A stretch of DNA of 64,000 nt, taken from contig OV884060.1 in NCBI GenBank assembly GCA_930367215.1, positions 175,223,253-175,287,252 on the forward strand, in the 5' to 3' direction. The translations under genes and the position numbers were made by a program. How positions within the stretch are numbered: the stretch's first letter is position 1; each line of letters begins with the position of its first letter. The notes beneath the pieces are model-generated. The model ran no database searches and was not told the origin of the DNA. It saw only the letters and a program-made list of their open reading frames with translations. This DNA comes from Pollenia angustigena. Lineage: Eukaryota > Arthropoda > Insecta > Diptera > Polleniidae. Below are positions 8,346 to 57,151 of the stretch, piece after piece.

Positions 8346-8475
8346 TTTTTTCTCTTTTTGTTGTTTTAACTCACTTCAGTCTCATAACTCAGCATAACTC
8401 CTTCTTATCGTAATTATCTGCTCTTAGGAAAAAAGCCCAAATAAATATTTTTCCATTTAACATAACGAAAAACTA

Positions 8476-8917
8476 CACGCAGAGAAAAAATATGTTTAAA
8501 AATGGTCACCTCCAACAAAACTATTTTTAAAGAAAAAATTTAACAATATTACTGTCACCTACAACCATATTATGGTTGAATAAGTCCTCCATCAAGAAGC
8601 CACAACCATATTATGGTTGTCATGATTAAATATGACAATAATTTGTTTTAAAATTAACAATAGTATTTTCCTCTTTTCCAAGAGCAACATGCTATGGTTG
8701 AAAACCAACCATGCTATTATAATTGTTAAACATGTTTTAGTTATTATTGACCATAACATGTTCGGAGGCAACCATAATATGGTTGGGGACTAATTCAACC
8801 ATAATATGGTTGTCGGTGACAATAATATTGTTAAATGAATCATAATATGTTTAAAATTTTCTTTAAAAATAGTATTGTTGGAGGTGACCATATTTAAACA
8901 TGTTTTTTCTCTGGATG
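8476..8917. mobile_element. TIR element (MITE), CACGCAGAG family, copy 1
   Basis: A nearly palindromic 442-bp element: the left end cacgcagagaaaaaatatg and right end catgttttttctctggatg are inverted repeats. Inside, accatattatggttg and its complement recur many times, so the whole unit can fold back. The left flank is TA; the right flank reads tt, a likely mutated TA. It lacks a transposase. The copy at 53705-55287 is its closest relative and is interrupted by another element. Confidence 0.75.
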
Positions 8918-20343: not shown

Positions 20344-22197
20344 CACAGAAAAAAATATCTCAAGAAAATTTTTAACAACACAGTTTGTTAAAAATATAAT
20401 TTTTGTTCAACAAACTTTGTGTTTGATTCAATGAAAAAATTTATCAAATATACACTTTACAAAATAGCACTCAATAAAACATATTTAATAATTAAGCAAC
20501 CAGTGAAATGCATAGGAATAGCTTATCCCATCAACAATAAATTTCAAGTGTTTTTATCAATAATAAAAACTGGGAATTAAGCACGAATAACAAAATCTTT
20601 TGAAATTAAAATTTTGTATTCCCAAAAATTTAAATTACTTTTTGATAATAAACAGGCAGTGCACGGCCTAAAAAACACTTAATTGACAACATCTTTTGTA
20701 AGTTGTTGTTTTTTTTTTTTTTTTTTTTTCATTTTGTTTTTCTTAACCTACTTACAACTACAATTAATGTTGAGAGAATTTCAACTAATTGTAGTGGGGA
20801 AATGTAAGATGAGATGAACCCACTGTTGTTTATTGTTGATGTGTTTTGTTTAAACTTTGATATTGTTACAAGTAGAACTGTTGCTATAATTCTTATACGT
20901 TTAACAGTTTTATTTGGTTTAATATCTTTAGTTTGTCTAAAACCTTTATGGATGAAGTTTCCTGATGATCTGGCCTAAGCAACCAGTGAAATGCATAGGA
21001 ATAGCTTATCCCATCAACAATAAATTTCAAGTGTTTTTATCAATAATAAAAACTGGGAATTAAGCACGAATAACAAAATCTTTTGAAATTAAAATTTTGT
21101 ATTCCCAAAAATTGAAATTACTTTTTGATAATAAACAGGCAGTGCACGGCCTAAAAAACACTTAATTGACAACATCTTTTGTAAGTTGTTGTTTTTTTTT
21201 CAGTTTGTTTTTCTTAACCTACTTACAACTACAATTAATGTTGAGAGGATTTCAACTAATTGTAGTGGGGAAATGTAAGATGAGATGAACCCACTGTTGT
21301 TTATTGTTTATGTGTTTTGTTTAAACTTTGATATTGTTACAAGTAGAACTGTTGCTATAATTCTTATACGTTTAACAGTTTTATTTGGTTTAATATCTTT
21401 AGTTTGTCTAAAACCTTTATGGATGAAGTTTCCTGATGATCTGGCCTAAGCAACCAGTGAAATGCATAGGAATAGCTTATCCCATCAACAATAAATTTCA
21501 AGTGTTTTTATCAATAATAAAAACTGGGAATTAAGCACGAATAACAAAATCTTTTGAAATTAAAATTTTGTATTCCCAAAAATTTAAATTACTTTTTGAT
21601 TTAATAATGAAATATTTAAATATTTCTTGATGTTCAATAAAACAAATATTTGAATCAACGTTAAAACAGTATTTTTACAACTCTTGTTCATTTTATAATA
21701 GGTAATAATTCTCATTCGCTTAACAGTTTTATTTGGTTAACTATCTTTAGTTTTGCCAAAGTCTTTAGAAAAAGGTTTCCTGATGATCTGGCTTAAGCAA
21801 CCAGCGAAATGCACATAGGAACTAGCTTATCCCCCCATAATAAATTTCTGTGTATTTTTTTATAATGGAAAAAATTGGCAATTAAGCACGTCACCATTAA
21901 TAAATAAAGATTCGAAAAAATTTAATTTATTTGATTCGATAAACATTTTATTTGATTTATTCAATATTTCCAACAATTTATTTTAACAAATCAAGCAAAC
22001 ATTTTTGAAAAAAATTATTTTGGGCAACAACTTTTTTTATTGATTCAATAAACTTGGTTGTTGACTAAAAATTCAATAGCTATACCTACAAACTTTTTTA
22101 TCAATAATGCAAAAATCGTCATCGCAGAAAATTCAAAAATTTTTTTTATCAAATATGCGATTTTCGTATTCAAATATGAAAATTATTTTTTTCTGTG
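20344..22197. mobile_element. TIR element, CACAGAAAAA family, 1.85 kb
   Basis: Left end cacagaaaaaaata and right end ttatttttttctgtg are inverted repeats flanked by TA (20342-20343; 22198-22199). Subterminal palindromic phrases such as caacaaactttgtg follow. The interior is largely the 475-bp tandem repeat listed separately; no transposase is seen. The copy at 43827-44848 has the same ends and the same TA duplication. Confidence 0.7.
20494..21600 (+). repeat. Tandem ~475-bp repeat, 2.3 units
   Basis: The anchor aagcaaccagtgaaatgcat occurs at 20494, 20977 and 21448, periods of 483 and 471 bp. The copies are nearly identical apart from a poly-T run (T20 at about 20710 in the first unit), so the duplication is recent relative to the dispersed relatives at 11.4, 21.7, 28.5 and 56.8 kb. 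The third unit breaks off near 21600 after actttttgat. Confidence 0.85.
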
Positions 22198-29135: not shown

Positions 29136-29375
29136 AATAGTAATACGTCAATCCTTAAACCAAATTGTATTTTAATCTTTGGTAGATCGAAATTTGCTTT
29201 TTGAATGATTATCTATTTTAATTTATTTTTACATGTTTTTTCCTTACTTCTGCTTACTTACTTTAATAATTCTGATAAAGTAGTTTTAAACCTGCATACT
29301 CATTTGGGTTGGAGCCATATGCCCGAAGATTAAAATCGTGGATCCAAAGTTCCGAATATCCAAATTCAGACTCGC

Positions 29376-29655
29376 CACCTAAAGCTTCTCGCCATAGCCG
29401 GCCTTCGGCCGTGCGCAAGGATTATTCTCCTCTATGCTATAACAAGCACTGGCCTCCCTAACACACGCCTTTCTGCATAGCCGGCATGCGGCACAAATAA
29501 CTCTTTAATGAATCTTATCCTCAGAACATAATTTTGTTTTGCAGGATCCATGATTAGCCATGGGACCCAAACAGGTTACAATCTCGAAAATGTGTCTTTA
29601 TATACTGAAGTGTAAGCAATGAAATAGTCGGACTTGACCGGCTATTATTTCATAC
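29376..29655 (-). repeat. Solo GC-rich foldback unit joined to a dispersed repeat
   Basis: 29380-29500 carries the phrase agccggccttcggccg followed by gcgcaaggattattctcctc and a degraded second unit, matching the ~81-bp units inside the foldback elements at 41.3-41.7 and 43.1-43.5 kb. 29530-29655 is an inverse copy of the repeat at 16803. No coding content. Confidence 0.65.
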
Positions 29656-32412: not shown

Positions 32413-32994
32413 ATGAATCGTCTTACAAACTAACATCGCTTGCAAATTATTGAATTTTATTATCAAAATTCGTGCTTTGTTAAGAAAGTTCATCGCCCGC
32501 TTCTTGTGTTTAGCGACGAAGCTCATTTCTGGCTCCATGGGTACGTTAATAAGCAGAATTGTTGATTTTGGAGTGAAGATCAGCCAGAAGCATTGCAAGA
32601 GCTACCAATGCATCCAGAAAAAGTCACAGTTTGTTGCGGTTTATGGGCTGGTGGCATCATTGGACCGTACTTCTTCAAAGATGATGCGAATCGTAACGTA
32701 GCTGAGAATGGTGAGCGCTACCGTCAGATGATATCCAACTTTTTTTTGCCCAAAATGCAAGAGCTTGACTTGCATGACATGTGGTTTCAACAAAACGGTG
32801 CCAAATGCCACACACATAAGAATGGACTTATTGAGAGGAGTGTTCGGTGAACATTTAATTTCACGTTCGGGACCGGTCAGTTGGCAGCCTAGATCTTGCG
32901 ATTTAAACCTTTAGACCATTTTTCGTGGGGCTATGTTAAAGCTCATGTCTATACACACATGCCCGCTTCAATTGACGCATTGGAAGACTACATT
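32413..32994 (+). pseudogene. Array unit 1 (A type, founder-like mariner 5' end)
   Basis: Begins with ATG at 32413 (MNRLTN...) and the best preserved upstream flank, which looks like a mariner 5' UTR. After the internal deletion it reads ELPMHPEKVTVCCGLWAGGI, GPYFFKDDANRNVAENGERY and HDMWFQQNGAKCHTH, then stops. Asn replaces the catalytic Asp in QQNG, and a 6-7-bp loss shifts the frame. Confidence 0.8.
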
Positions 32995-33565
32995 ATGCTT
33001 CAACGAACAACGCTTGCAAATTATTGAATTATTATCAAAATGAGTGCTCTGTTAAGAAAGTTCATCGCGTGCTTCTTCCATTTTAGACGAAGCTTATTTC
33101 TGGCTCAATGGGTACGTTAATAAGCAGAATTGTGGATTTTGGAGTGAAGATCAGCCAGAAGCATTGCAAGAGCTACCAATGCATCCAGAAAAAGTCACAG
33201 TTTGTTGCGGTTTATGGGCTGGTGGCATCATTGAACCGTACTTCTTCAAAGATGATGCGAATCGTAACGTAGCTGAGAATGGTGAGCGCTACCGTCAGAT
33301 GATATCCAACTTTTTTTTGCCCAAAATGCAAGAGCTTGACTTGCATGACATGTGGTTTCAACAAAACGGTGCCAAATGCCACACACATAACAATGGACTT
33401 ATTGAGAGGAGTGTTCGGTGAACATTTAATTTCACGTTCGGGACCGGTCAGTTGGCAGCCTAGATCTTGCGATTTAAACCTTTAGACCATTTTTCGTGGG
33501 GCTATGTTAAAGCTCATGTCTATACACACATGCCCGCTTCAATTGACGCATTGGAAGACTACATT
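32995..33565 (+). pseudogene. Array unit 2 (A type)
   Basis: 571 bp, nearly identical to units 4 and 6. Same QQNGAKCHTHNNGLIERSVR ending with an early stop. The A-A adjacency of units 1 and 2 breaks the later A-B alternation. Confidence 0.8.
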
Positions 33566-34143
33566 ATGCTTCAACGAACAACGCTTGCAAATTATTGAAT
33601 TATTATCAAAATGAGTGCTCTGTTAAGAAAGTTCATCGCGCGCTTCTTCCATTTTAGACGAAGCTCATTTTTGGCTCAATGGGTACGTTAATAAGCAGAA
33701 TTGTTGATTTTGGAGTGAAGATCAGCCAGAAGCATTGCAAGAGCTACCAATGCACCCAGAAAAAGTCACAGTTTGTTGCGGTTTATGGGCTGGTGGCATC
33801 ATTGGACCGAACTTCTTCAAAGATGATGCGAATCGTAACGTAGCTGAGAATGGTGAGCGCTACCGTCAGATGATATCCAACTTTTTTTTTGCCCAAAATG
33901 CAAGAGCTTGACTTGCATGACATGTGGTTTCAACAAGACGGTGTCACATGCCACACAGCACGCTTAACAATGGACTTATTGAAAGGCGAGTTCAGTGAAT
34001 ATTTTATTTCACGTTCGGGACCGGTCAATTGGCCGCCTAGATCGTGCGATTTAACGCATTTAGACTATTTTTTGTGGGGCTATGTTAAAGCTCATGTCTA
34101 TACACACATGCCCGCTTCAATTGACGCATTGGAAGACTACATT
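33566..34143 (+). pseudogene. Array unit 3 (B type)
   Basis: 578 bp; an extra T in the run before gcccaaaatgcaag (33881-33889) breaks the frame that is open in units 5 and 7, so only the part from 33889 is open. Carries QQDGVTCHTARLTMDLLKGE with the Asp intact and RSCDLTHLDYFLWGYVK. Ends in the fused EDYIMLQRTTLANY, which is the junction to the next unit. Confidence 0.8.
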
Positions 34144-34714
34144 ATGCTTCAACGAACAACGCTTGCAAATTATTGAATTATTATCAAAATGAGTGCTCTG
34201 TTAAGAAAGTTCATCGCGTGCTTCTTCCATTTTAGACGAAGCTCATTTCTGGCTCAATGGGTACGTTAATAAGCAGAATTGTTGATTTTGGAGTGAAGAT
34301 CAGCCAGAAGCATTGCAAGAGCTACCAATGCATCCAGAAAAAGTCACAGTTTGTTGCGGTTTATGGGCTGGTGGCATCATTGGACCGTACTTCTTCAAAG
34401 ATGATGCGAATCGTAACGTAGCTGAGAATGGTGAGCGCTACCGTCAGATGATATCCAACTTTTTTTTGCCCAAAATGCAAGAGCTTGACTTGCATGACAT
34501 GTGGTTTCAACAAAACGGTGCCAAATGCCACACACATAACAATGGACTTATTGAGAGGAGTGTTCGGTGAACATTTAATTTCACGTTCGGGACCGGTCAG
34601 TTGGCAGCCTAGATCTTGCGATTTAAACCTTTAGACCATTTTTCGTGGGGCTATGTTAAAGCTCATGTCTATACACACATGCCCGCTTCAATTGACGCAT
34701 TGGAAGACTACATT
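34144..34714 (+). pseudogene. Array unit 4 (A type)
   Basis: 571 bp; same sequence features as unit 2, with GPYFF and QQNG. Confidence 0.8.
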
Positions 34715-35291
34715 ATGCTTCAACGAACAACGCTTGCAAATTATTGAATTATTATCAAAATGAGTGCTCTGTTAAGAAAGTTCATCGCGCGCTTCTTCCA
34801 TTTTAGACGAAGCTCATTTTTGGCTCAATGGGTACGTTAATAAGCAGAATTGTTGATTTTGGAGTGAAGATCAGCCAGAAGCATTGCAAGAGCTACCAAT
34901 GCACCCAGAAAAAGTCACAGTTTGTTGCGGTTTATGGGCTGGTGGCATCATTGGACCGAACTTCTTCAAAGATGATGCGAATCGTAACGTAGCTGAGAAT
35001 GGTGAGCGCTACCGTCAGATGATATCCAACTTTTTTTTGCCCAAAATGCAAGAGCTTGACTTGCATGACATGTGGTTTCAACAAGACGGTGTCACATGCC
35101 ACACAGCACGCTTAACAATGGACTTATTGAAAGGCGAGTTCAGTGAATATTTTATTTCACGTTCGGGACCGGTCAATTGGCAGCCTAGATCGTGCGATTT
35201 AACGCATTTAGACTATTTTTTGTGGGGCTATGTTAAAGTTCATGACTATACACACATGCCCGCTTCAATTGACGCATTGGAAGACTACATT
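34715..35291 (+). pseudogene. Array unit 5 (B type)
   Basis: 577 bp; a 146-residue frame is open from 34884 through the unit junction. It has GPNFF, QQDG and LTHLDYFLWG; differs from unit 7 in NWQPRS for NWPPRS and VHDYTH for AHVYTH. Confidence 0.8.
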
Positions 35292-35862
35292 ATGCTTCAA
35301 CGAACAACGCTTGCAAATTATTGAATTATTATCAAAATGAGTGCTCTGTTAAGAAAGTTCATCGCGTGCTTCTTCCATTTTAGACGAAGCTCATTTCTGG
35401 CTCAATGGGTACGTTAATAAGCAGAATTGTTGATTTTGGAGTGAAGATCAGCCAGAAGCATTGCAAGAGCTACCAATGCATCCAGAAAAAGTCACAGTTT
35501 GTTGCGGTTTATGGGCTGGTGGCATCATTGGACCGTACTTCTTCAAAGATGATGCGAATCGTAACGTAGCTGAGAATGGTGAGCGCTACCGTCAGATGAT
35601 ATCCAACTTTTTTTTGCCCAAAATGCAAGAGCTTGACTTGCATGACATGTGGTTTCAACAAAACGGTGCCAAATGCCACACACATAACAATGGACTTATT
35701 GAGAGGAGTGTTCGGTGAACATTTAATTTCACGTTCGGGACCGGTCAGTTGGCAGCCTAGATCTTGCGATTTAAACCTTTAGACCATTTTTCGTGGGGCT
35801 ATGTTAAAGCTCATGTCTATACACACATGCCCGCTTCAATTGACGCATTGGAAGACTACATT
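35292..35862 (+). pseudogene. Array unit 6 (A type)
   Basis: 571 bp; same as units 2 and 4 at the resolution of reading by eye. Confidence 0.8.
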
Positions 35863-36565
35863 ATGCTTCAACGAACAACGCTTGCAAATTATTGAATTAT
35901 TATCAAAATGAGTGCTCTGTTAAGAAAGTTCATCGCGCGCTTCTTCCATTTTAGACGAAGCTCATTTTTGGCTCAATGGGTACGTTAATAAGCAGAATTG
36001 TTGATTTTGGAGTGAAGATCAGCCAGAAGCATTGCAAGAGCTACCAATGCACCCAGAAAAAGTCACAGTTTGTTGCGGTTTATGGGCTGGTGGCATCATT
36101 GGACCGAACTTCTTCAAAGATGATGCGAATCGTAACGTAGCTGAGAATGGTGAGCGCTACCGTCAGATGATATCCAACTTTTTTTTGCCCAAAATGCAAG
36201 AGCTTGACTTGCATGACATGTGGTTTCAACAAGACGGTGTCACATGCCACACAGCACGCTTAACAATGGACTTATTGAAAGGCGAGTTCAGTGAATATTT
36301 TATTTCACGTTCGGGACCGGTCAATTGGCCGCCTAGATCGTGCGATTTAACGCATTTAGACTATTTTTTGTGGGGCTATGTTAAAGCTCATGTCTATACA
36401 CACATGCCCGCTTCAATTGACGCATTGGAAGACAACATTGAAGCATTTATTCATGAGATACCGGCCGAAATGTTGGAAAGAGTATCCCAAAATTGGACTA
36501 AGCGGATGGACCATTTAAGGCGCAGTCACGGTCAACATTTGCATGAAATAATCTTCAAACATTAA
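35863..36565 (+). pseudogene. Array unit 7 (B type, with transposase C-terminus)
   Basis: The only unit reading past ALED into NIEAFIHEIPAEMLERV and ending HLHEIIFKH. The 177-residue frame from 36032 contains the second Asp (QQDG) and third Asp (LTHLD), with 41 residues between them, the basis for the DD41D assignment. The N-terminal DNA-binding region and first catalytic Asp are out of frame, so the product would be inactive. A mariner-like 3' end (ctcttaaaaaatcaccca, to about 36667) follows. Confidence 0.85.
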
Positions 36566-40786: not shown

Positions 40787-40813
40787 GGTCACATCGCCAC
40801 GACGTAAGATAAC

Positions 40814-42197
40814 GGCTGTAGGAAATATCGCCCAAAGAAAAATGCCCCAAAAAAAAAAATGAAAAATCGCCCAAATGAAGAATCGCCCAAGCGAACATGA
40901 AAAATGACCCAAAAAGGTAAATATGAAATTTTGCCCAAAAAAAACGAAAAAGGGCCCAAAAAGAAAATGAAAATGACCCAAAAAGCAAAAGCGAATTGTT
41001 TCCCAAAAAAAAAAAAAAAAAAAAGTGTCATAATGTCCATCGAAGACGAGGACGAGGACGTTATGACACTTTGCAACGTCCGCAACTTAACTTATAATCA
41101 AAAATGTGTAAATTTTTTTTTAAAATACCGTTAAAATTTCAAGTGATTTTTTTAAAGATACTTATTTAACCATAATATGGTTGTCGGTGACAATGATTTG
41201 GTTAAATTAAACCTAATATGGATAAAATATTTTTATAGCTTTTACTCCGGGTGTATATATTAAAAATAACTATCCAAAATAAGGATTTCATCTTCTATGG
41301 TATAACAAATACTGGCTTCGCTAACTAAAGCTTCTCTGTATAGCCGGCCTTCGGCCGGGCGCAAGGATTTTCTCCTCTATGGTATAACAAAGACCGGCTT
41401 CGCTAACTAAAGCTTCTCTGTATAGCCGGCCTTCGGCCGGGCGCAAGGATTTTCTCCTTTATGGTCTAACAAAAACCGGTTTCGCTAAGTAAAGCTTCGA
41501 AAAACTGCCTTGTTTCCGAACAAGGCCGACTACGCAGATAAGCTTTAGTTAGCGAAGCCGGTGTTTGTTATACCATAGAGGAGAAAATCCTTGCGCCCGG
41601 CCGAAGGCCGGCTATACAGAGAAGCTTTAGTAAGCGAAGCCGGTCTTTGTTATACCATAGAGGAGAAAATCCTTGCGCCCGGCCGAAGGCCGGCGATACA
41701 GAGAAGCTTTAGTTAGCGAAGACAGTATTTGTTATACCATAGAAGAGAAAATCCTTATTTTCGATATATATGTATATATTTAATATATACACCCAGAGAA
41801 AAAGCTACAAAACCACTTTTAAGAAAATTCTACCGATATTATGTTTAATTTAACCAAATCATTATCGCCGACAACCATATAATGGTTAAATGAGTTTCTT
41901 GAAAAATAGTTTTGTTGTTTGCAACCATAATAAAACATGGTTTTCTCTGCTATGTAAGATTATGGTAGAATTTTAAAAATAGCCCATTTTTTTGGGCCAT
42001 TTTTCATACAACATTTTTGGGTGATTTTTCATTATGAATTTAAAAAACGAAAAATCACCCAACAATAACGATAAATAGCCCAAAAATGTTGGGCCATTTT
42101 TCATATGAAATCAGGCCCAATTTTACATGCAATTTTTTTGGGCGATTTTTCATTTTTTTTTTGGGCGGTTTTTCTTTGGGCGATATTTCCTACAGCC
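40814..42197. mobile_element. Foldback element A, 1384 bp, 9-bp target duplication
   Basis: The termini ggctgtaggaaatatcgccc and the perfect inverse (ending 42197) are flanked by taagataac at 40805-40813 and 42198-42206. From outside in: tandem gccc-A(n)-tgaaaaatc phrases, a hairpin gtgtcataatgtcc/ggacgttatgacac (41025-41069), a block with ccataatatggttgtcgg phrases (41157-41241, mirrored 41789-41945), and inverted arms of ~81-bp GC-rich units. The whole element can fold on itself. Copies 1 and 3 of the host mariner show the uninterrupted site with a single 9-mer. The 9-bp duplication and repeat-built arms recall Drosophila FB elements; MULEs also make 9-bp duplications, so the superfamily is open. 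No transposase is seen. Confidence 0.85.
41281..41760. repeat. GC-rich ~81-bp units in inverted arms (element A)
   Basis: The left arm carries units starting aaggatttt at 41281, 41363 and 41444 (periods 82 and 81 bp); the right arm carries the same units inverted up to about 41760. Each contains the hairpin ccggccttcggccgg and the phrases ctcctctatggtataacaaa and ccggcttcgctaactaaagc. The arms meet around gccttgtttccgaacaaggc (about 41508-41527), itself a hairpin. Confidence 0.9.
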
Positions 42198-42640
42198 TAA
42201 GATAACACGTCCGTTAAATTTCTCGCGCAAAAGAGCCATTGTTTCGTTGGCTTTGTGGATATGTGGTACCATCCTGTTGGAACCGTATATTGTCAAGTTC
42301 CATATCCTCAATCCGTCCGTTATCAACTCGCGATAGCAAACACCAATTACGAGTCGAGGTTGACGGCTTATCTGCCACACTATCGTGAACAATAGCAATC
42401 TTTTTCGCAGAACGAACTGAACACATTTGGTCGATTATGCTGGTCAAGAAAATCACGAAATGCATTTTGAATTGAACGAATATTTTGGTAAAAGGCTTCA
42501 ACAATCCTAACTCAATTGTGAACCTCTCCGTACACTTGTCAAACTCTGAAAAAAAGAAATGTCAAATTAATTGAGGCAAAAAACTTGACGTTAAGTTGTG
42601 ACTCACAATTAACACCGTGCATTATGGTTGGACCATTCTT

Positions 42641-42876
42641 AAAATAGATTAAAAGTCAAGAGAACTGTCCAAAACACAAGCTTTTTCGAATGGCTCATCA
42701 TTAAAAAAATACGATAATTGTTTTCTTCTTCTTTAATAAAAGTTTATATTCATATTCGATACCATGATATTAATCCAGGTATGGGAGTGTTAATTTAAAT
42801 TGAAATGGTAATAAATATTAATTGATAAACAATTTTAATTTAATTTGTTTAAAAATAATTTAAACTGATTGAAACA
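42641..42876. other. Spacer between mariner copies 2 and 3
   Basis: About 235 bp of AT-rich sequence with no recognised feature. Confidence 0.5.
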
Positions 42877-42916
42877 TAAATGGTGTTTATAATTTAAGGG
42901 CCGATGTTGATTTTGA

Positions 42917-43771
42917 GGCTGTAGGAAAAATCGCCCAAAGAAAAATGGCCCAAAAAATAATGAAAAATCGCCCAAAAAAATTCCATGTAAAATTAGGCCT
43001 TTATGACACTTTTAAGTGTCATAATGCCCATCAGAGCAGTGTCGTAAAGTCCGTGGACGTTATGTCACTTAGTAGAGTGTCATAATGTCCACAACATGCT
43101 TACAAACTCGAAAGCATAGCCGACCTTCGGCCGGTCGCAAGGATTTTCTCCTCTTTGATTGAACAAGTACCGGCTTCGCTAACTTAAGCTTCTGTGCACA
43201 GCCGGTCTTCGGCCGGTAGCAAGGATTTTCTCCTCTATGGTATAACAAAGACCGGCTTCGCTAACTAAAGCTACTCTGCGAAGTCGGCCTTCGTTCGGAA
43301 ACAAAGCAGATTTTAGAAGCTTTACTTAGAGAAACCGGTACTTGGTATACCATAAAGGAAAAAATTCTTGCGCCCGCCCAAGGCCATCTGCGCAGAGAAG
43401 CTTTAGTTAGCGAAGCTGGTCTTTGTTATACCATAGAGGAGAAAATCCTTTGGCCCGGCCGAAGGCCGGCTATGCAGAGAAGCTTTAGTTAGCGAAACCG
43501 GTTTTTGTTTTGGTAAATTAAGTTTTTTTAAAAATAGTTTTGTTGGTTTTTCCCAAATTGGGTAATTTTTTTTTTTTTTGGAAAAAAATCGTTTTTGCTT
43601 TTTGGGTCATTTTTCAGTTTTTTGGGCCCTTTTTCGTTTTGTTTGGGCAAAATTTCATATTTAACTGTTTGGGTAATTTTTCATATTCTTTTGAGCGATT
43701 CTTCATTTGGGCGATTTTTCATTTTTTTTTTTTTTTGAGCCATTTTTCTTCGGGCGATATTTCCTACAGCC
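42917..43771. mobile_element. Foldback element B, 855 bp, 9-bp target duplication
   Basis: The same ends as element A (ggctgtaggaaaaatcgccc; inverse ending 43771) are flanked by tgattttga at 42908-42916 and 43772-43780. Mariner copy 1 has the single, uninterrupted tgattttga at the corresponding place near its 3' end. It shares the gccc-A(n) phrases, the gtgtcataatgtcca hairpin phrases (43015-43095) and ~81-bp GC-rich units (43109-43505, partly inverted) but is shorter and more rearranged than A. No coding sequence. Confidence 0.87.
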
Positions 43772-43826
43772 TGATTTTGATTAAAACACAATTTATTTAG
43801 GAAATTATTGTCATTTCTTTTTATTA

Positions 43827-44872: not shown

Positions 44873-45480
44873 TTATGTATGGAACAAAATATCGGCCAAA
44901 TGGCCGCCGCGACCTCGGCGGCACACCACCATCCGATGGTCCAAATTTTGGATGACGCTGAGGAAAAATTTAGGTTCTATGACGTCAATGTGCCGAATTA
45001 CATCATCCTTTAGCTCTTGAATTGTTGCTGGCTTATCGACGTACACCATTTCTTTCAAATAACCCCAAAGAAAGAAGTCCAACGTGGTCAAATCACACGA
45101 TCTTCGCGGCCAATTGACATCGCCATCACGTGAGATAACAAGGCCATTGAATTTGTCGCGCAATAGAGCAATTGTTTCGTTAGCTGTGTGTCAAGTGGCA
45201 CCGTCCTGTTGAAATCAAATATCGTCCACATACATATCTTCCAATTTCAGCCATAAAAAGTTCGTTATCATCTCATGATAGCGGGCACTATTCACAGTAA
45301 ATGGCTGCCCAGCCTCATTTTGGAAGAAATACGGCGCGATGATGCCGCCTGCCCATAAACCGCCCTAAACAGTCACTCTTTGTGGGTGCATTGGTTTTTC
45401 GACAATCACTTTTGGATTATCATTCGCCCAAATGCGGCAATTCTGCTTATTGACGAATATGCCTCATCACTGAATTACAA
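44873..45480 (-). pseudogene. Mariner transposase, copy 3 C-terminal half
   Basis: Reading leftward on the minus strand: KQNCRIW, IVEKPMHPQRVTV, LWAGGIIAPYFFQNEAG then, after frame changes, FQQDGAT and the open stretch RDKFNGLVISRDGDVNWPRR, CDLTTLDFFLWGYLKEMVY, ending HLADILFHT at 44873. Second and third Asp are 41 residues apart. Stops and an internal deletion next to 45470 leave no active enzyme. Confidence 0.82.
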
Positions 45481-45532: not shown

Positions 45533-47092
45533 ATGAGCCTCACAAATACTCCCAATAAGGAGAGTAGGCCCAGCACAAATAGCAGAAATGCGTATATTGT
45601 GGTAAGCTCCCCGAGCGTGAGCAATGAAAACATTCGATACCCTGAATTAAACAAACATCTTTTAAGTGCAAAAATTGCCAGCGCAACTGGTTTTCCATAC
45701 AGAAATTTAAGTTCAAGTGTGCCCAACCTGAGCAAGTGTGTTGATCCGACCGTAAATGTGGTTCAAAGTGTGAAGCCGTCTGACCAGAGGAATAATAACG
45801 AAAAACCTGGAACATCACGATTTGCATTAACAAATACAGGAGCTGTACCAAAAAGTACTAAAGTGCAAACAGGCATGGACAGATATATAACAATAACTAA
45901 GAGAAAGGCTAGCCCTAGGTCCACCCAACAGGAACGCGTGGCCAAACAATACAAAGGCTCTAACGTAGTCTCTTTGCCAACAAATGGTAACAGATTCTCT
46001 GTACTATCCATACCTGACGATGAAGAAGCAGAATTAGCTAATGGGACAGCCACTAAAGAAGTTAAACCGCCACCTATCTATCTGCGGGAGCAAACATCAA
46101 ATAGCATAGTCAACATGTTGACTCAACTTGTAGGTAAGAACAATTTCTACGTCGTTTCTATACGACGCGGACAAATTCAAGAGACCAAAATTCAAGCCAG
46201 TACAGAAACGAACTTTCGTATTATATCAAGACACCTGGACGCAGAAAATAAAAGCTACTATACATACCAATTAAAAAGTGCTAAGGGATTGATTATTGTC
46301 ATAAAAGGCATAGATAGTTCCGTTCCTACAGATGAAATAAAATCTGCCGTAGAGCAAGAGGGGTACGAGGTAAAATCGGTTCATAACATTTTGAACAGGA
46401 ACAAAGTTCCCCAACCACTGCACCGCATTGAGATATCGTTTGATTCATCGGTTCTCAAAACCAAAAATTCAGTTCATCCCATATACAACTTGCGCTACCT
46501 ACTCAACAGAAGAATAACTGTTGAGGAGCCAATAAAACGAAAGGGTCCCTCCCAATGCACAAACTGTCAGGAATATGGGCATACAAAATCATATTGTAAA
46601 TTGCCTCACGTATGTGTGGTTTGTGGCGACGCTCATAAAACCGCCGAATGTAATCGTTCTAAAGTTGACCCAAATGTCAAGAAATGCAGCAACTGTGGCG
46701 AAAATCACACGGCAAACTATAGGGGTTGTAAAGTCTTCTTGCATTTAAAAAAACCAGCTTTAGTTCAAAAATATACTCACTCCCAATATGGTCCATCACA
46801 TGCGCCCAGCCAAGCCGCTGGCTCTATTGCTAGTACTACACAAACAAACAAACAAAACCAATCATATGCCCAAGTCCTAAAAGGAAACCCTAATGCGAAA
46901 AATCCCCCGAGTACTTCCAACGCAAAGCAACCTCCATACGCTAATGTTCCTAGGGAAGGTCTACAAATGCCTACCTCAATTGAAAATTTAATTCAAACTA
47001 TGAATAACTTCATGGCCACTATGCAGAGCATGTTTCAGGAAATGATGCGAAACCAGAACATGCTCCTGCAAGTTCTACTCAACAAAAAATGA
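45533..47092 (+). CDS. Jockey ORF1, Gag-like nucleic-acid-binding protein (519 aa)
   Basis: ORF1 proteins of jockey-clade LINEs bind the element RNA and form the ribonucleoprotein moved to the nucleus for integration. The first ~190 residues are polar, with basic patches such as TKRKASPRSTQQERVAKQYK. Residues ~240-335 form a pre-zinc-knuckle domain of the PRE_C2HC type (GLIIVIKGIDSSVPTDEIKS...). Three zinc knuckles follow from residue 342: CTNCQEYGHTKSYC, CVVCGDAHKTAEC and CSNCGENHTANYRGC. The C-terminus is Gln/Asn-rich and ends near a Met-rich helix (TMNNFMATMQSMFQEMMRNQ). The start at 45533 is the first Met in the open frame. The stop overlaps the ORF2 start in ATGA. No disruption is seen. 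Confidence 0.93.
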   Translation: MSLTNTPNKESRPSTNSRNAYIVVSSPSVSNENIRYPELNKHLLSAKIASATGFPYRNLSSSVPNLSKCVDPTVNVVQSVKPSDQRNNNEKPGTSRFALTNTGAVPKSTKVQTGMDRYITITKRKASPRSTQQERVAKQYKGSNVVSLPTNGNRFSVLSIPDDEEAELANGTATKEVKPPPIYLREQTSNSIVNMLTQLVGKNNFYVVSIRRGQIQETKIQASTETNFRIISRHLDAENKSYYTYQLKSAKGLIIVIKGIDSSVPTDEIKSAVEQEGYEVKSVHNILNRNKVPQPLHRIEISFDSSVLKTKNSVHPIYNLRYLLNRRITVEEPIKRKGPSQCTNCQEYGHTKSYCKLPHVCVVCGDAHKTAECNRSKVDPNVKKCSNCGENHTANYRGCKVFLHLKKPALVQKYTHSQYGPSHAPSQAAGSIASTTQTNKQNQSYAQVLKGNPNAKNPPSTSNAKQPPYANVPREGLQMPTSIENLIQTMNNFMATMQSMFQEMMRNQNMLLQVLLNKK

Positions 47093-49749
47093 ACCAGTTA
47101 AAAATATGTTTCTGGAATGCAAACGGGTTATCCCAACATAAACACGAAGTTGCAAACTTTCTTCATAGGCATGAAATCAACGTACTTCTTGTCTCTGAAA
47201 CACACTTTACTCATAAAAACTGCTTTAGGGTAAATGGTTACCTTACGTATGACACAAAACATCCCAGCGGACGAGCTTGTGGTGGCACAGCCATAATTGT
47301 GCACAAACACATCAGACACTTACCATTGCCAGAGTTCGAAGAAGATTGTATCCAGGCCACATCTATAAATCTGACTGATTTCAAACTAACGTTAACATCC
47401 GTTTATTGTCCCCCGAGGCACAAAATTCTACACGATAAATTTCTCAACTTCTTCTCCACATTGGGCCAGAAATTCATTGCTGCTGGCGACTACAACGCTA
47501 AACATACATATTGGGGCTCCAGACTTATTAGTCCTAGAGGTAATCAGCTATATAATACCGTAACTTCAAATAACTTTGATGTGGTATCGAGTGGTGAGCC
47601 TACCTATTGGCCAACCGACTTCAACAAGCTACCAGACCTTATTGACTTTGCTGTAATCAAAAACATCAAGCGCGATCAGGTACTAGTTAGTTCCTCCTAT
47701 GATCTTTCGTCTGATCATTCACCTTCAATCCTCATTTTAAAATGTAACTCTGACGCCGCAGCTGCAAACTGGTTTTCCTATCCAAACAGAAACACAAATT
47801 GGTTAAAGTATAAAATGTATGTGAGCTCTCACCTATCACAGTGCATTCCCCTAAAAAATTCATCTGACATCCAAATAGCTGTCGACCGATTTACAGAAGT
47901 CTTGGATGCTGCAGCAAGAAATGCAACCCCAATCAAGCGGACAATTAAACGTGCTCCTTACAATACATCGACGGATATAGAGACCCTTATCAGAGAAAAA
48001 AGGAAGTTAAGAAGACAATGGCAAAACAGTCGTTCCCCAACCACTAAGGCCCAACTACAATTATGCCTGACAACTCTTCGCAACAAATTGAGACAGAACC
48101 ACGAGTCTGCAATAGAAGGCTATCTAAACAGCCTAGATGCCACAAAAAACTCCAATTATAGCTTACGGAAGGCTGTACGGCATATGAAATGCCCTATAAC
48201 CCAAGAATCTCCATTAAGACTGGAAAACCGCACTTGGGCGAAAAACACAGATGAAAAATTAAACGCTTTCGCGGGCCATCTTGAGAAAGTTTTCACGCCA
48301 CATGATACACATACTTGTTCCTGTCGTCCAACCATTCCTGATAAGGTAAACCATCCATTAAAATTTAACATTACTCAAGTAAAATCTGCAATAGAAAAAG
48401 TGAATATTAGAAAATCTCCCGGACTTGACCGTATCACAGGGTCAATGATAAGAAACTTACCTTCGTCTGCTTCCAGAATCTTGCTGTTCATTTTTAACGC
48501 TATATTAAGAGTCGGATACTTCCCATCCTCATGGAAGAAGTCTATAATTGTTATGATTCCCAAGCCAGGAAAAGATGCTAGCCAGGTTGCGTCGTACAGA
48601 CCGATAAGCTTATTATCAATCCTATCAAAGCTTTTCGAAAAAATATTCATTTTAAGTATAACTCCTCATCTAAATGAACACGACATCATCCCGGATCACC
48701 AGTTCGGATTCAGAGCGAAACATGGTACAATAGAGCAAGTGCATAGAATTGTCACCCTTATTAGATCGGCGTTTGAGAAAAAGCAATACTGCTCAGCCCT
48801 GTTTATAGACATTTCCCAAGCATTTGACAAAGTTTGGCATGATGGGCTACTCATCAAAATAACACGAATGCTTCCTCAAAACACTCACAAGCTTCTGGAG
48901 AGCTATCTAACAGGCAGAACATTCATAGTAAGGTCGCAAGATAAATACTACCCCCTCAAGAAAATTACTGCTGGTGTTCCCCAAGGCAGCATATTAGGAC
49001 CGCTTCTATATATAATATACACAGCGGATATGCCAACAAACCTGAGCACGCATACCTCTACATTTGCAGACGACACAGCATTTATTAGCGTTAACCATGA
49101 CCCAAAAGTCGCATCGCAAAATCTGCAGTCCCACATCAATGAACTAGAGGCATGGCTAGAAAAATGGAGAATAAAGGTTAACCCGGCTAAATGTGCTCAC
49201 TTAACTTTCACGCTCAGAAGACAAACGTGCCCAGCAGTAAAAATAAATAACATCACTGTTCCGGTAGAAAACCATGTAAAGTACTTGGGAGTTCATATAG
49301 ATAGACGTTTGACCTGGTCTCGTCATATCGAAGCGAAAATAACGGCTATGAAACTTAAAGCAGCTCAACTACATTGGCTTCTCGGTAGAAACTCAAACTT
49401 GTCTTTAGACAACAAAGTTCTTCTATACAAGTCCATCATAAAACCAATATGGACATATGGCATCCAATTATGGGGTACTGCATGCGCATCTAACATCCAA
49501 AAGCTTCAAAGAAGACAGTCTAGAATATTACGACAAATTGTCTGCGCCCCATGGTATATACGTAATGATATTATCCACAGAGATCTCAACGTCCCCACTA
49601 TCCAGGAGGAAATTAAAAAATATTCAATAAGCTACATCGATAAACTAATGGTTCACCCTAACTACCTCGCTCGGGGTTTGCTTCAGTTTGAAGGTCACCA
49701 GAGGCTAAAAAGAACCGATACTTTGAGCCTTACTAGAAGACAGTCTTAA
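47089..49749 (+). CDS. Jockey ORF2, endonuclease and reverse transcriptase (886 aa)
   Basis: This enzyme nicks the target DNA and copies the element RNA onto the nick. The N-terminal ~225 residues are an apurinic-type endonuclease: KICFWNANGL, LLVSETHFT, AAGDYNAKH and SSDHSPSIL hold the expected Asn, Glu, Asp/Asn and Asp-His catalytic residues. The reverse transcriptase spans about 440-720: SPGLDRITGSMI, ASYRPISLLSILSKLFEKI, FGFRAKHGTIEQV, ALFIDISQAFDKVWH (first Asp), GVPQGSILGPLLY, and FADD at residues 659-662 (catalytic pair). KYLGVHIDRRLTW follows. The C-terminus ends RTDTLSLTRRQS. No RNase H motif is evident. Length and order fit the jockey clade. Translation probably uses reinitiation at the ATGA overlap with ORF1. 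No stop or frameshift is present. Confidence 0.95.
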   Translation: MNQLKICFWNANGLSQHKHEVANFLHRHEINVLLVSETHFTHKNCFRVNGYLTYDTKHPSGRACGGTAIIVHKHIRHLPLPEFEEDCIQATSINLTDFKLTLTSVYCPPRHKILHDKFLNFFSTLGQKFIAAGDYNAKHTYWGSRLISPRGNQLYNTVTSNNFDVVSSGEPTYWPTDFNKLPDLIDFAVIKNIKRDQVLVSSSYDLSSDHSPSILILKCNSDAAAANWFSYPNRNTNWLKYKMYVSSHLSQCIPLKNSSDIQIAVDRFTEVLDAAARNATPIKRTIKRAPYNTSTDIETLIREKRKLRRQWQNSRSPTTKAQLQLCLTTLRNKLRQNHESAIEGYLNSLDATKNSNYSLRKAVRHMKCPITQESPLRLENRTWAKNTDEKLNAFAGHLEKVFTPHDTHTCSCRPTIPDKVNHPLKFNITQVKSAIEKVNIRKSPGLDRITGSMIRNLPSSASRILLFIFNAILRVGYFPSSWKKSIIVMIPKPGKDASQVASYRPISLLSILSKLFEKIFILSITPHLNEHDIIPDHQFGFRAKHGTIEQVHRIVTLIRSAFEKKQYCSALFIDISQAFDKVWHDGLLIKITRMLPQNTHKLLESYLTGRTFIVRSQDKYYPLKKITAGVPQGSILGPLLYIIYTADMPTNLSTHTSTFADDTAFISVNHDPKVASQNLQSHINELEAWLEKWRIKVNPAKCAHLTFTLRRQTCPAVKINNITVPVENHVKYLGVHIDRRLTWSRHIEAKITAMKLKAAQLHWLLGRNSNLSLDNKVLLYKSIIKPIWTYGIQLWGTACASNIQKLQRRQSRILRQIVCAPWYIRNDIIHRDLNVPTIQEEIKKYSISYIDKLMVHPNYLARGLLQFEGHQRLKRTDTLSLTRRQS

Positions 49750-53702: not shown

Positions 53703-53976
53703 TACACGCTGAGAAAAAACATGCTTAAATATGGTCACCTCCAACAATACTTTGTTTAAAAAAAATTTTAACCATATTATGTTTAATTTAACCATATTAT
53801 TGTCACCGACAACCATATTATGGCTAAATTAGTCCCCTATTAAGAAGCAACAACCATATTATGGTTGACTCTTAACATGTTATGGTTAAATATGACAGTT
53901 ATTTATTTTAAATTAACAATAGTATTTTCCTCTTTTTAAGGAACAACATGCTATGGTTGAAAACCAACCATGTTAT

Positions 53977-55071
53977 CACGCAGAGAAAAAACATGGTTAC
54001 TGAGTGGTCACTACCACCATTTTTATTCATATTTGCCTTATATTTATGTTTACCCTAATAATTTTATTATAGTCCTAACATAACTTGAAAAAATATTTTT
54101 TGTCCTTAACATTTTTAAAATCACTATAATAATATTATATGGTGTTTTACACCTAAAAAGTTACTCTGATCTAGCTAAACATATCAAATTATGTGAAATG
54201 TTTGCTACTATAATAAATATATTTTCAACTATACATTTAAAATCGTAATTCTAGTTGCACACAAAAGGTATGTTTAATACCATAATTTTTGTTTGCTTTA
54301 AAATACATTATCTAAATGAACAGACATTTATTGTTAGAACCAACAGTGTGTGTTTATAAAGAAACAAAATTGCTTCCGTCCGCGAGCATCAGTTAATCGG
54401 CAAACATGGATGATTACAAAATAATTAAGAAGTTTTTCGGGAGAAAAAGGCCATGCTGCGATGCAAAACTTACAAAATAAATTAGTTTATTGAAACAGGT
54501 AAGTTATTAATATAAAATTATAATCAAGTATAAATATGCAATAACGTTGCCTTTCTAACAGCCAAGAAAACCTACAACATTGAAACCGCCTTGGAAATTA
54601 TTTCAATTGCTGTTCCAGAGTGTATTAATAGTGGATTTTATAATAGAAAAAAAGGAAGTTTGTCTTTACTTTATTTTTACAAGTGCTAAATTTATGTATT
54701 TAATGTTATTTTTTAATGTATGTATAATATACATACATTGTATATACTTTATATGTATTTGAATTATATTTGTGTTTTTAATAAAAAAATTATTCTTGAT
54801 ATTAAATATTTTATTGGTTTTATTGTGACAACCATATAACATGTTAAAATAGACATGTTGCATGGTGTTAGGAAATATAGAAACATGGTTTGAATAATCG
54901 TTTGCGTTTCTCTTCTGAGAATAATAATATGTTTGAGACAATAATTAGCTATAACATTATGTCTGAACATATGTATATTGTTTCTTAAGACGTGTTTGAC
55001 ACAATCATAACCACAAACATTAATGATAGTTTGCGATTCTGATTGTATCAACCATGTTTTTTCTTTGCGTG
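53977..55071. mobile_element. Nested TIR element inside its relative, 1095 bp
   Basis: Ends cacgcagagaaaaaacatgg and ccatgttttttctttgcgtg are inverted. The flanks read AT on both sides (53975-53976; 55072-55073). The uninterrupted sequence in the 8476-8917 copy has a single AT at this point, so a 2-bp duplication is supported. The interior is unlike the host element and contains the mini-gene listed next. Confidence 0.8.
54406..54770 (+). other. Putative two-exon mini-gene inside a TIR element
   Basis: An ATG at 54406 opens MDDYKIIKKFFGRKRPCCDA and stops at 54478-54480. Just after, a textbook intron fits: donor cag|gtaagt at 54499 and acceptor ctttctaacag| ending 54561, 63 nt long, the common size in flies. 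Downstream is an A/T-rich frame to 54762. The stop before the donor means the intron would be in a 3' UTR, or the first exon has a frameshift. It may be a relic of the element's own gene. I do not recognise the product. Confidence 0.35.
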
Positions 55072-55289
55072 ATTATAATTGCAAAACATATTTTAGTTAT
55101 TATTAACCATAATATGTTCGAAGGCAACCATAATTTGGTTGCGGCTTCTTGATGGAGGACTATTTTAACTATAATATGGTTGTCATTGACAATCATATGG
55201 TTAAATTAAACATAATATGGCTAAGATTTTCTTTTAACATAGTATTGTTGGAGGTGACCATATTTAAATATGCTTTTTCTCTGGGTGTA

Positions 55290-57151
55290 TATCGCATGAA
55301 ATTGGGCGTTTAAACTGCCAATAAAAACTATATGAATTTGACAGCATTTATCGTAGTGCTGAGACATTATTTTTTCTTGAACTACATATTATGTTTATGG
55401 CACTGATTTGCAGCTGTTGAGTTTAAACTACACATAAATTTAAGTTAAGTACAAAAATTTATGAAGTTTTTATTCATTATTGAGTTTTCGTTTATTTAAC
55501 GAAATCTTTTTAACATGAACGCGCGTAAATTCTACGAATTGTTCGCTATCATAACAAACACGTACGTTAAAGTTAATGAAGTTTTTTTTCCTTTACTATG
55601 AGTTTTTGTTCACTTAACGAAACCTTCATTAAAAATTATCTCCACGCATAGAACTTGCAATTGATTCGTTGGTATTTAAAAGAGTTTAAGTTTACCATTT
55701 TGTTTTGGCATTTTTCTTGTTATAATTCTTTTCGAACTAGTTCTTTATAAAATATCATTTAAACAAATACAAAAGCGCAGTTTAATTTTATTAAAAATAA
55801 GCTTAGAAGTGTATTCTTAAGTAAAATTGATTCAGTAAAATGATTTTCTATCTGTGTAAAATAAAATTCTTTAATTCTTTGTATCCATTTTAGATTAAGA
55901 TGCCGAAAAAAGAGCTTTAAAATTTATGGAAAGCCATCATTTAAACACAAAATTAATGTGCTTACCATTTAAAAGAATGGAGAGAAAGCATTGGAAAACC
56001 TTTAGAGGCACTTTGTTGTCAACAAATTCCTCATTCTTCTCTGCCATACGGAATTTCATCCAGATCCAACCTGTATGTGTTAATCCAAGTGTTTGTACAC
56101 CGACAACAGCAAAATCTGCCACCAAACCAAATTTTTACAACAATTACACTCTGCTTGTTGAAAAAACAGTTAAGCAGGGCAACCAGCACCATTTTTTTTT
56201 ACGACAGCCCTTGTTTTTGAAATATACCATTGCACTATATTTCTGTAACTTAAAAACTGTATAGTTATGTTTTGCAAGGATATCTAAATTTTTAGAGCAA
56301 CTTTTTTTTTTGAAAAATAAAGCTAAAATTTATTAATTTTTTTTAACACAAATAATACAATTTAAAAAATATTATTTGATTATATTTTTCCATTAGACCC
56401 CACCCAGAAATAGTAAAAAAATAATAAAAAACTACAAAAAATGTATTATTAAACAAAACTCCATTTAGCACTTGAAATAATTAACATTAGTAAACTAATA
56501 AAAGACCAAAATGGAAAAAAACGAACAAAGTTTTAACACAATTTCATACCGACTTAATTGATTTATCTGATAGTGTTTTTTCTGTAAATTGATAGAAATA
56601 CACCCATAATGACAGATAGAAAATGTTTTTATAAAAAACTCTTATACACTTGAAAATCAAAACAAGAACATTATATTTATCAGCAGAGTTATCAGCGAAT
56701 CATTTCACCTCCACATTTGAGTTATTTTTCGGATTGCATTGAATACGAAAAACGATGTCAACGATAATGATGGAAATATACAAAAGAAAGAGAAATTACA
56801 ATTACCGGATAGAGATGTGAAATGCGCATAGGAATAGCTTATCCCATCAACAATAAATTTCAAGTGTTTTTATCAATAATAAAAACTGGGAATTAAGCAC
56901 GAATAACAAAATCTTTTGAAATTAAAATTTTGTATTCCCAAAAATTGAAATTACTTTTTTAAATTTTTTATATTATATTTTTTTTTTAATTCGGAATCAA
57001 TCTAAGGGGTTTACCAAGTGAAAATACGAAAAAAAATTGTCCATATAACTTGCGGCCACACTACCTCTTCCATTTTCGAAATTACAGTATATCTCGAAAA
57101 CAAGAGCTAACTTAAAAAAAAAAATTATGGTTATCACCACTGAATTCAGTG
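55290..57151. other. AT-rich non-coding stretch
   Basis: No supported gene. Overlapping frames at 55926-56264 (+) and 55937-56125 (-) have more balanced composition than most, and the minus one reads VGVQTLGLTHTGWIWMKFRM, but I cannot assign either. Confidence 0.4.
56816..56960 (+). repeat. Partial copy of the 475-bp dispersed repeat
   Basis: gtgaaatgcgcataggaatagc through tattcccaaaaattgaaatt matches the first 140 bp of the tandem units at 20.5 kb almost exactly, then diverges after actttttt. Confidence 0.8.

What the first reader, a model, noticed from the sequence alone, without database searches (positions are those of the whole stretch)
40814..43771. Two related foldback elements with 9-bp target duplications and modular repeat-built arms
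Elements A (1384 bp) and B (855 bp) share identical 20-bp termini (ggctgtaggaaatatcgccc type), each with a different, perfect 9-bp duplication (taagataac; tgattttga). From the ends inward both have gccc-A(n) phrases, a gtgtcataatgtcc hairpin, and ~81-bp GC-rich units with a ccggccttcggccgg hairpin in inverted arms. FB elements of Drosophila and MULEs both make 9-bp duplications; the layout with several nested repeat layers does not match a family I can name. The GC-rich units stand out strongly in an AT-rich genome.
Basis: partly seen in the sequence, partly recalled or inferred. Interest (0 to 1): 0.87.

Follow-up and report, generated by a model that had tools for sequence, protein, structure and literature searches.

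The report
Jumping gene nested in jumping gene
Two short repeat elements in a large, probably insect, genome are stripped-down copies of a Mutator-type jumping gene that each carry part of a second, likely also Mutator-type, jumping gene inside them, and two such one-inside-the-other junctions occur more than a thousand times each in the genome, likely spread by the outer element's enzyme.

Summary
A (40814-42197) and B (42917-43771) share termini, have perfect 9-bp duplications, and related repeats in the window give unoccupied sites for both. The host genome (1.37 Gb) settles the family. The 20-bp terminus occurs 7,268 times (reversed control 0). The six best Mutator-transposase (PF10551) loci carry it, five have both ends, and four of those five have perfect 9-bp duplications. 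A and B are internal-deletion derivatives of this family ("Y"). The layered look comes from nesting. The gtgtcataatgtcc hairpins and GC-richer palindrome belong to another foldback family ("X": ends GGTGGCATGTCATAACGTCC, 8,374 places, 8-9-bp duplications). X also lives on its own (10 of 10 sampled copies hold the GC units) and has jumped into Y at three sites, two of them with clear unoccupied counterparts. Two Y|X junctions recur 1,177 and 1,571 times, against about 20 background hits, so the composites multiplied as units. X is probably Mutator-type too: a decayed MULE has X-like ends. This is a new variant of type-2 foldback MULEs. No transposition was tested, and the transposase that moves X was not found.

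The parts
40805..40813 (.). Target duplication of A, left copy (TAAGATAAC)
   Evidence: present once, with one mismatch, at the related empty site 45117-45241
40814..42197 (-). Element A: deletion derivative of MULE family Y holding X remnants (Y reads on the minus strand)
40814..41024 (-). A: Y 3'-end arm with 13-bp subterminal motifs
   Evidence: matches Y copy M58 2541-2334 at 93.75% and M54 3700-3490
41022..41950 (-). A: nested X segment (hairpin motif, flanking arms, 82-bp unit palindrome); X's own termini lost
   Evidence: A 262-1016 matches X of M54 at 91.7% over 771 bp; free X copies match A up to position 1137
41025..41069 (.). A: GTGTCATAATGTCC / GGACGTTATGACAC hairpin = X subterminal repeat
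41261..41776 (.). A: GC-richer palindrome, arms 41261-41497 and 41540-41776, 94% complementary
   Evidence: units
41952..42197 (-). A: Y 5'-end arm
   Evidence: matches M54 259-1 (89.2%) and M58 182-1 (93.4%)
42198..42206 (.). Target duplication of A, right copy (TAAGATAAC)
42908..42916 (.). Target duplication of B, left copy (TGATTTTGA)
   Evidence: present once at 2424-2510
42917..43771 (+). Element B: second Y derivative with X core, in the opposite orientation to A
42917..43000 (+). B: Y 5'-end arm
   Evidence: matches M58 1-86 at 93%
43015..43509 (.). B: nested X segment (hairpin repeats, then GC-unit palindrome)
   Evidence: B 198-585 matches X57 at 87.9%; B 99-593 matches it at 78.7% in the other orientation
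43547..43771 (+). B: Y 3'-end arm
   Evidence: matches M58 2315-2541 at 87.8%
43772..43780 (.). Target duplication of B, right copy (TGATTTTGA)
29372..29492 (+). Lone decayed fragment of about 1.5 GC-units; the nearest Y termini in the window (at most 3 mismatches) are those of A
   Evidence: 82.6% to A over 121 bp; terminus scan

Best explanation
A and B are non-autonomous, internally deleted members of a Mutator-like (MULE) DNA transposon family, Y, that carry remnants of a second foldback family, X, which inserted into Y copies and was then copied along with them, likely by Y's transposase acting in trans. Shown by sequence: long Y copies with the same ends encode MULE and RING domains and a weak FLYWCH match; X is a separate family with its own ends and 8-9-bp duplications; X sits in Y at three sites, one in an inferred intron of the transposase gene, one on the 3' side and one on the 5' side, and Y copies without X at the intron and 3' sites exist; the 3'- and 5'-side Y|X junctions recur more than a thousand times each. 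Inferred: the path of events was Y with X inside, then deletion of the transposase gene (and often one X end), then cut-and-paste amplification by Y transposase binding the 20-bp terminus and the repeated GAAAAATCGCCCA motifs. X is probably moved by a related MULE transposase. Neither enzyme was tested.
For: Y is a MULE: of 38 PF10551 matches in the host genome, 30 came with loci; the top six by score, and none of the other 24 loci, carry the terminus within about 1.5 kb. M58 is 2541 bp with duplication TAAACAAAC. A's left arm matches its right end (93.75% over 208 bp) and A's right arm its left end (93.4% over 182). M54, M56 and M57 (3700, 3287, 3491 bp) also have perfect 9-bp duplications and M55 (3697 bp) an 8-bp one; M53 has one end. 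Pfam: MULE 1.7e-11, RING zf-C3HC4_3 1.9e-11, FLYWCH 1.2e-4, just under its cut-off. M57 has four open exon-like frames. Family size: 3652+3616 termini, reversed control 0. Sampled pairs: 17 of 20 perfect duplications of exactly 9 bp, 0 of 380 cross-pairs; 20 of 20 hold GC-units. Nesting: M56 and M57 hold X between copies of TTATTTTA where M53, M54 and M55 have one copy; M54 holds X between copies of TAAATTTA where M56 and M57 have one; L048 holds a 979-bp X between copies of TTGCAAAAA and L033 has an X at the same site. Free X: 10 of 10 sampled pairs hold GC-units; 7 have 8-bp and 2 have 9-bp perfect duplications, 1 has one mismatch in 9; 0 of 90 cross-pairs; the nearest exact Y terminus of the list is 15 to 397 kb away. 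X termini 4216+4158, reversed control 0. Amplified junctions: 3' type 603+574, 5' type 778+793; the intron-type pattern gives 22 in all, 19 of them at 2-3 mismatches, which I take as background.
Against: The two Y ends are near-identical for only about 62 bp, short of the >100-bp inverted repeats typical of MULEs, although related repeats continue. No copy was shown to be active. X's transposase is not identified: the MULE with X-like ends (L070) is decayed and differs at 3 of 20 terminal positions. Junction counts come from patterns; only 15 (13 of the 3' type, 2 of the 5' type) were read in the 20 sampled copies. In 5 of the 20, and in A and B, the X junction itself is gone, so their nesting is inferred from homology. 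The right X end in M54 has diverged, so its 8-bp duplication rests on aligning that end; in M55 the same duplication has one mismatch. For the 5'-side insertion the Y references align across the site at only 73.5-81%. Three of the 20 sampled Y pairs lack a perfect duplication (1, 3 and 7 mismatches). The intron-type composite did not amplify: three places at 0-1 mismatch. One search listed only exact termini, so a diverged Y end near a sampled X is not excluded; 20-bp flanks of six of the ten X copies have loose matches (up to 4 of 20 differing) in held Y copies, four have none. The samples come from the first 21 Mb (Y) and 15 Mb (X) of one contig.
Confidence: 0.92

Rival explanations
1. One foldback family whose arms grew their own layers (subterminal repeats, hairpins, GC units) by tandem expansion, as proposed for Tetris; no nesting.
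For: The GC-unit layer recurs in A, B and all 20 sampled copies; growth by duplication within the arm is the published suggestion for Tetris (passages of PMC4079207).
Against: The inner layers have their own termini and duplications, occur alone in 10 of 10 sampled X copies, and are absent from Y copies at two sites where the unoccupied sequence is intact.
Confidence: 0.04
2. P-superfamily foldback (Galileo-like, THAP transposase).
For: Long repeat-built arms in a likely insect genome.
Against: Long copies with both ends encode a MULE domain, and Pfam scans of three frames each of M58 and M57 list no THAP or P-element family. Duplications are 9 bp in 17 of 20.
Confidence: 0.01
3. The GC palindrome is a passively captured genomic segment (Pack-MULE-like capture) taken up independently by X and Y.
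For: MULE derivatives often hold foreign interiors (passages of PMC5225508); a lone unit fragment exists at 29372-29492.
Against: In Y the palindrome comes together with X's arms and terminus: 13 of 20 sampled copies have the same Y|X junction and 2 have the 5'-side one. How X itself acquired the palindrome is not explained and may be a capture.
Confidence: 0.05

Closest known systems
Muta1/Muta5 and their non-autonomous derivatives, Aedes aegypti (PMC5225508; passages read)
   Same: MULE with FLYWCH domain, 8-9-bp duplications, arms made of a short terminal motif plus 12-15-bp subterminal repeats (Muta1 is called a type-2 foldback there), many derivatives with foreign interiors.
   Different: Here a C-terminal RING finger is fused to the transposase, and the interior is a second foldback transposon with its own ends and duplications; terminus counts are in the thousands, against over 300 (Muta1) and over 200 (Muta5) derivatives.
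Tm1 Mutator/Foldback family, root-knot nematodes (PMC3169594; passages and first part of the Discussion read)
   Same: Composite repeat-built arms, mostly 9-bp duplications, a single transposase-coding copy and many MITE-like ones; a nested unrelated element was reported at one locus.
   Different: Tm1 has asymmetric terminal motifs and about 14-bp repeats; no amplified nested composite was described in the passages read.
Plant MULEs with multiple TIRs (PMC3310237; passages read)
   Same: Elements with extra internal inverted repeats that amplified.
   Different: [quoted passage not shown] here the inner element has its own duplication and unoccupied counterparts, and belongs to another family.
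Tetris, Drosophila virilis (PMC4079207; passages read)
   Same: Foldback element with tandem repeats in the arms, 8-10-bp duplications, placed by its authors in the Mutator superfamily.
   Different: No transposase was found for Tetris; here long copies encode one. Tetris repeats are explained there by duplication within the arm, not by nesting.

Membership tests
Mutator-like (MULE) superfamily | Full-length copy with both termini encodes a MULE transposase | tested here: met
   Five copies with both ends and the MULE frame; PF10551 E 1.7e-11 for M58's frame
Mutator-like (MULE) superfamily | Target duplications of 8-11 bp (range from a passage of PMC6446971) | tested here: met
   Exactly 9 bp in 17 of 20 sampled pairs, and in A and B
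Mutator-like (MULE) superfamily | Long terminal inverted repeats, typically >100 bp | tested here: inconclusive
   About 62 bp near-identical between the two ends, then related repeats out of register
Phantom clade of MULEs | FLYWCH N-terminal domain and MULE domain; clade placement by phylogeny | tested here: inconclusive
   FLYWCH 22.7 and 22.0 bits, below the 23.6 cut-off; no tree was built
Type-2 foldback MULE (Muta1-like) | Arms = terminal motif + short subterminal tandem repeats | tested here: met
   20-bp terminus plus 3 to 9 copies of a 13-bp motif (at most 3 mismatches) per arm
Type-2 foldback MULE (Muta1-like) | Imperfectly palindromic 10-bp terminal motif, as in Muta1 | tested here: not met
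   By eye, the first 10 bases GGCTGTAGGA pair at only two of four positions (sequence)
P superfamily (Galileo-type foldback) | P-element transposase with THAP domain | tested here: not met
   Frames of full-length copies give MULE, RING and weak FLYWCH, no THAP; genome-wide THAP search not done
Drosophila FB / FB-NOF | Sequence homology to FB arms or NOF protein | not tested
   No FB or NOF sequence was fetched; resemblance is recalled only
Pack-MULE | Interior holds a host gene fragment | tested here: inconclusive
   The interior of A and B matches X, another mobile family; one 75-aa frame across the units found no protein relative, other frames were not searched

The most novel reading that the evidence does not exclude
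X is a hyperparasite of Y: a foldback transposon that repeatedly lands in harmless spots of another transposon (intron, 3' side, 5' side) and thereby gains thousands of extra copies, and whose palindrome or extra transposase-binding repeats make its carrier a better substrate, so that nested composites rather than plain deletion derivatives dominate the family.
Probability: 0.25. Interest if true: 0.72.

Novelty: new variant of a known kind. Interest (0 to 1): 0.56.

Why it matters
Foldback elements with layered arms have been explained by arm growth within one family. Here the layers come apart into two families with separate ends, duplications and unoccupied sites. This shows that nesting of one foldback element in another, followed by amplification of the composite, can build such layered elements. 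The plant work on multi-TIR MULEs left nested insertion with later loss of the inner duplication as one possibility (PMC3310237). The three insertion sites and the two junctions counted above a thousand times give a natural data set for asking whether a nested transposon helps its carrier spread. The RING finger fused to these transposases is a further testable oddity.

Tried and rejected
Viral contigs with the terminus and with a GC-unit 28-mer: 0 hits. Bacterial genome contigs with the terminus: 2 hits, a planctomycete MAG and a Defluviimonas, taken as chance. Protein search with a 75-aa frame across the GC units: nothing. Rfam over the window: 0 matches. tRNA scan: 0. Protein search with the window's retroelement ORF1 to place the host: the few named hits are Drosophila, Bactrocera and a moth (Eumeta), so an insect host is likely but unnamed. 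Protein search with the last transposase exon: 5 unnamed relatives at 46-67% identity, all with a RING domain. Literature searches; in their listings I saw no description of this nested pair. Papers opened: the five cited here (passages, plus one Discussion section) and PMC8277862 (outline and abstract only). A pattern for the palindrome centre counted 1,140 places but fits A-type centres only, so it was not used as a copy number. B could not be assigned firmly to one nested type: it shares a 23-bp X segment exactly with the 5'-type copies L041 and L048, but that segment also occurs exactly in one free X copy (L096) and with 2-3 mismatches in two more. 'Mariner-like' for the repeats around A is a label from memory; Pfam gave no match for the related frame at 36005-36565.

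Full report
1. The observation. One search places A at 40814-42197 and B at 42917-43771, with perfect 9-bp duplications TAAGATAAC and TGATTTTGA. Three of four 20-bp ends are identical and the fourth (B left) has one mismatch. Unoccupied counterparts of both insertion sites exist in the same window. The joined flanks of A align across the junction to related repeats at 45117-45241 (98 of 126) and 2092-2164 (60 of 75, with a 2-bp gap at the site). Those of B align to 2424-2510 (74 of 87, no gap). So A and B are separate insertions and not a segmental duplication. The repeats around A look mariner-like, a label from memory that Pfam did not confirm.

2. Anatomy. B is in the opposite orientation to A: A's left arm against B's right arm gives 186 identities, 16 mismatches and 10 gaps, and the asymmetric centre of the palindrome matches in that orientation; A's right arm matches B's left arm for about 85 bp (42113-42197). 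Each arm repeats a 13-bp motif near GAAAAATCGCCCA (7, 6, 9 and 3 copies with at most 3 mismatches; 14 of 14 window hits with at most 1 mismatch are inside A or B, 25 of 28 with at most 2). Inside lie GTGTCATAATGTCC hairpins (one side only) and 81-82-bp units in inverted arms (237-bp arms, 94% complementary in A). A decayed lone piece of the units sits at 29372-29492.

3. Family Y is a MULE. The host genome (1,370,458,813 bases, 31 contigs) has 3652 + 3616 termini with at most 2 mismatches; the reversed pattern gives 0 and 0. I fetched 20 opposed pairs from among the first 100 listed places, all in the first 21 Mb of contig C1; further pairs in that list were not fetched, and one fetched stretch (L033) held its pair further in than listed. 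Of the 20, 17 have a perfect duplication of exactly 9 bp (none at 7, 8, 10 or 11), and three have 1, 3 and 7 mismatches; 0 of 380 left-right cross-combinations match. The MULE domain search gave 38 matches; 30 came with loci of about 3.2 kb, and the six top-scoring ones, and none of the other 24, contain the Y terminus. Extended, five of these six have both ends (2541, 3287, 3491, 3697 and 3700 bp): four with perfect 9-bp duplications, one with an 8-bp one; the sixth has one end. A's two arms match the two ends of M58 at 93.8% and 93.4%. A is, in M54 coordinates, 1-259 plus parts of 2553-3700: the transposase gene is deleted. The frames give FLYWCH (just below cut-off), MULE and a C-terminal RING finger in the same frame as the end of the transposase.

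4. The inner layers are family X. Comparing long Y copies shows a second element with ends GGTGGCATGTCATAACGTCC. In M56 and M57 it lies between two copies of TTATTTTA, between exon-like frames; M53, M54 and M55 have that stretch once and no insert. In M54 it lies beyond the last exon between two copies of TAAATTTA (one mismatch in M55); M56 and M57 have it once. In L048 a 979-bp X lies between two copies of TTGCAAAAA near Y's 5' end. L033 has an X at that site with both copies, and L041 the left side of it. X also lives alone: I took the first ten exact opposed X pairs up to about 1.3 kb apart on C1. All ten contain the GC units and no Y terminus within the stretch fetched (20 bp of flank each side); seven have perfect 8-bp duplications, two perfect 9-bp ones, one a single mismatch in 9; 0 of 90 cross-combinations match. 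The nearest exact Y terminus in the list is 15 to 397 kb away; diverged Y ends were not listed there. X termini number 4216 + 4158, some of them inside Y. The hairpin motif is X's subterminal repeat.

5. The composites multiplied. The Y|X junction of the 3' insertion occurs 603 + 574 times and that of the 5' insertion 778 + 793 times, with at most 3 mismatches over 29-30 bases and reversed controls 0. The equally strict pattern for the intron insertion gives 22: M56, M57, one more at one mismatch, and 19 at 2-3 mismatches, which I read as unrelated X copies and use as the background; that composite itself did not amplify. The empty 3' site occurs 818 + 826 times. Among the 20 sampled copies 13 have the 3' junction, 2 the 5' junction and 5 neither, although all 20 hold GC units. 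A matches a 3'-type copy (L036) at 96.8% over 1189 bp but has lost the junction through a deletion of about 90 bp. B is an X-bearing derivative whose insertion site can no longer be read.

6. How it likely works. Y's transposase, encoded by a few long copies, would bind the terminus and the subterminal motifs and cut and paste any DNA between two Y ends; derivatives without the gene depend on it. X entered Y copies by its own transposition (duplications seen) and then travelled as cargo. A decayed MULE (L070, 2436 bp, duplication TTTAAAAAT, X-like ends, RING and partial MULE frames) suggests X's mover is also a MULE. Enzyme action is inferred, not tested.

7. Relation to the known. Y fits type-2 foldback MULEs such as Muta1 (passages of PMC5225508) and the Mutator/Foldback family Tm1 (PMC3169594). 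The strict Muta1 trait of a palindromic 10-bp end is not met, and Phantom placement was not tested by a tree. Multi-TIR plant MULEs lack inner duplications (passages of PMC3310237); here they are present. The passages of PMC6446971 that I saw mention RING fingers for two MULEs only: a separate frame in one aphid element, and one oomycete element.

8. Limits. One genome, samples from one end of one contig, pattern counts not read copy by copy, no expression or activity data, host species unnamed. Whether X helps Y spread was not tested: X-free Y derivatives were not counted. How X gained its GC palindrome is unexplained.

Noticed in passing
L053-L058 and other MULE loci (e.g. L066, L069, L076, L077); L070: The MULE transposases carry a C-terminal C3HC4 RING finger (Pfam in M58, M57 and L070 frames). 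tblastn with that exon matches other MULE families in this genome down to about 25% identity; a genome search with it gave 159 matches from 150 scored of 1,998 candidates.
   Followed up: partly
L059-L064 (six loci on C2, C4, C5): A different MULE family: five loci are 99.7-99.9% identical to the sixth over about 2.93 kb, ending at nearly the same points, without X or Y termini in the stretch held: looks recently active.
   Followed up: partly
window 32428-36439: About seven units of about 571 bp in tandem (92-98% alike), several with a piece of what looks like a mariner-type transposase frame (label recalled; no Pfam match).
   Followed up: no
window 8475-8917 and 53703-55289: Another inverted-repeat family (ends near CACGCAGAGAAAAA) whose arms resemble the stretch flanking the GC palindrome in A; one copy appears nested in another at 53979-55070.
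   Followed up: partly
window 45533-49749: Non-LTR retrotransposon with PRE_C2HC ORF1 and endonuclease/reverse transcriptase ORF2; a piece of its 3' part recurs at 4372-4914.
   Followed up: partly
L034 100-8308: An 8208-bp Y element with perfect duplication ATTTTAAAT has about 6.8 kb of other DNA inside its GC palindrome; not examined.
   Followed up: no
L067 near 1287: A short X-like element (about 100 bp, GGTGGC...GCCACC) lies inside another MULE, possibly in an intron.
   Followed up: no
L091: The flank of this free X copy resembles X subterminal sequence, so it may be an X inserted in another X (reading by eye).
   Followed up: no
window 20493-21607: 471-bp tandem repeat, 2.3 copies, part of which recurs at 56817-56959.
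   Followed up: no
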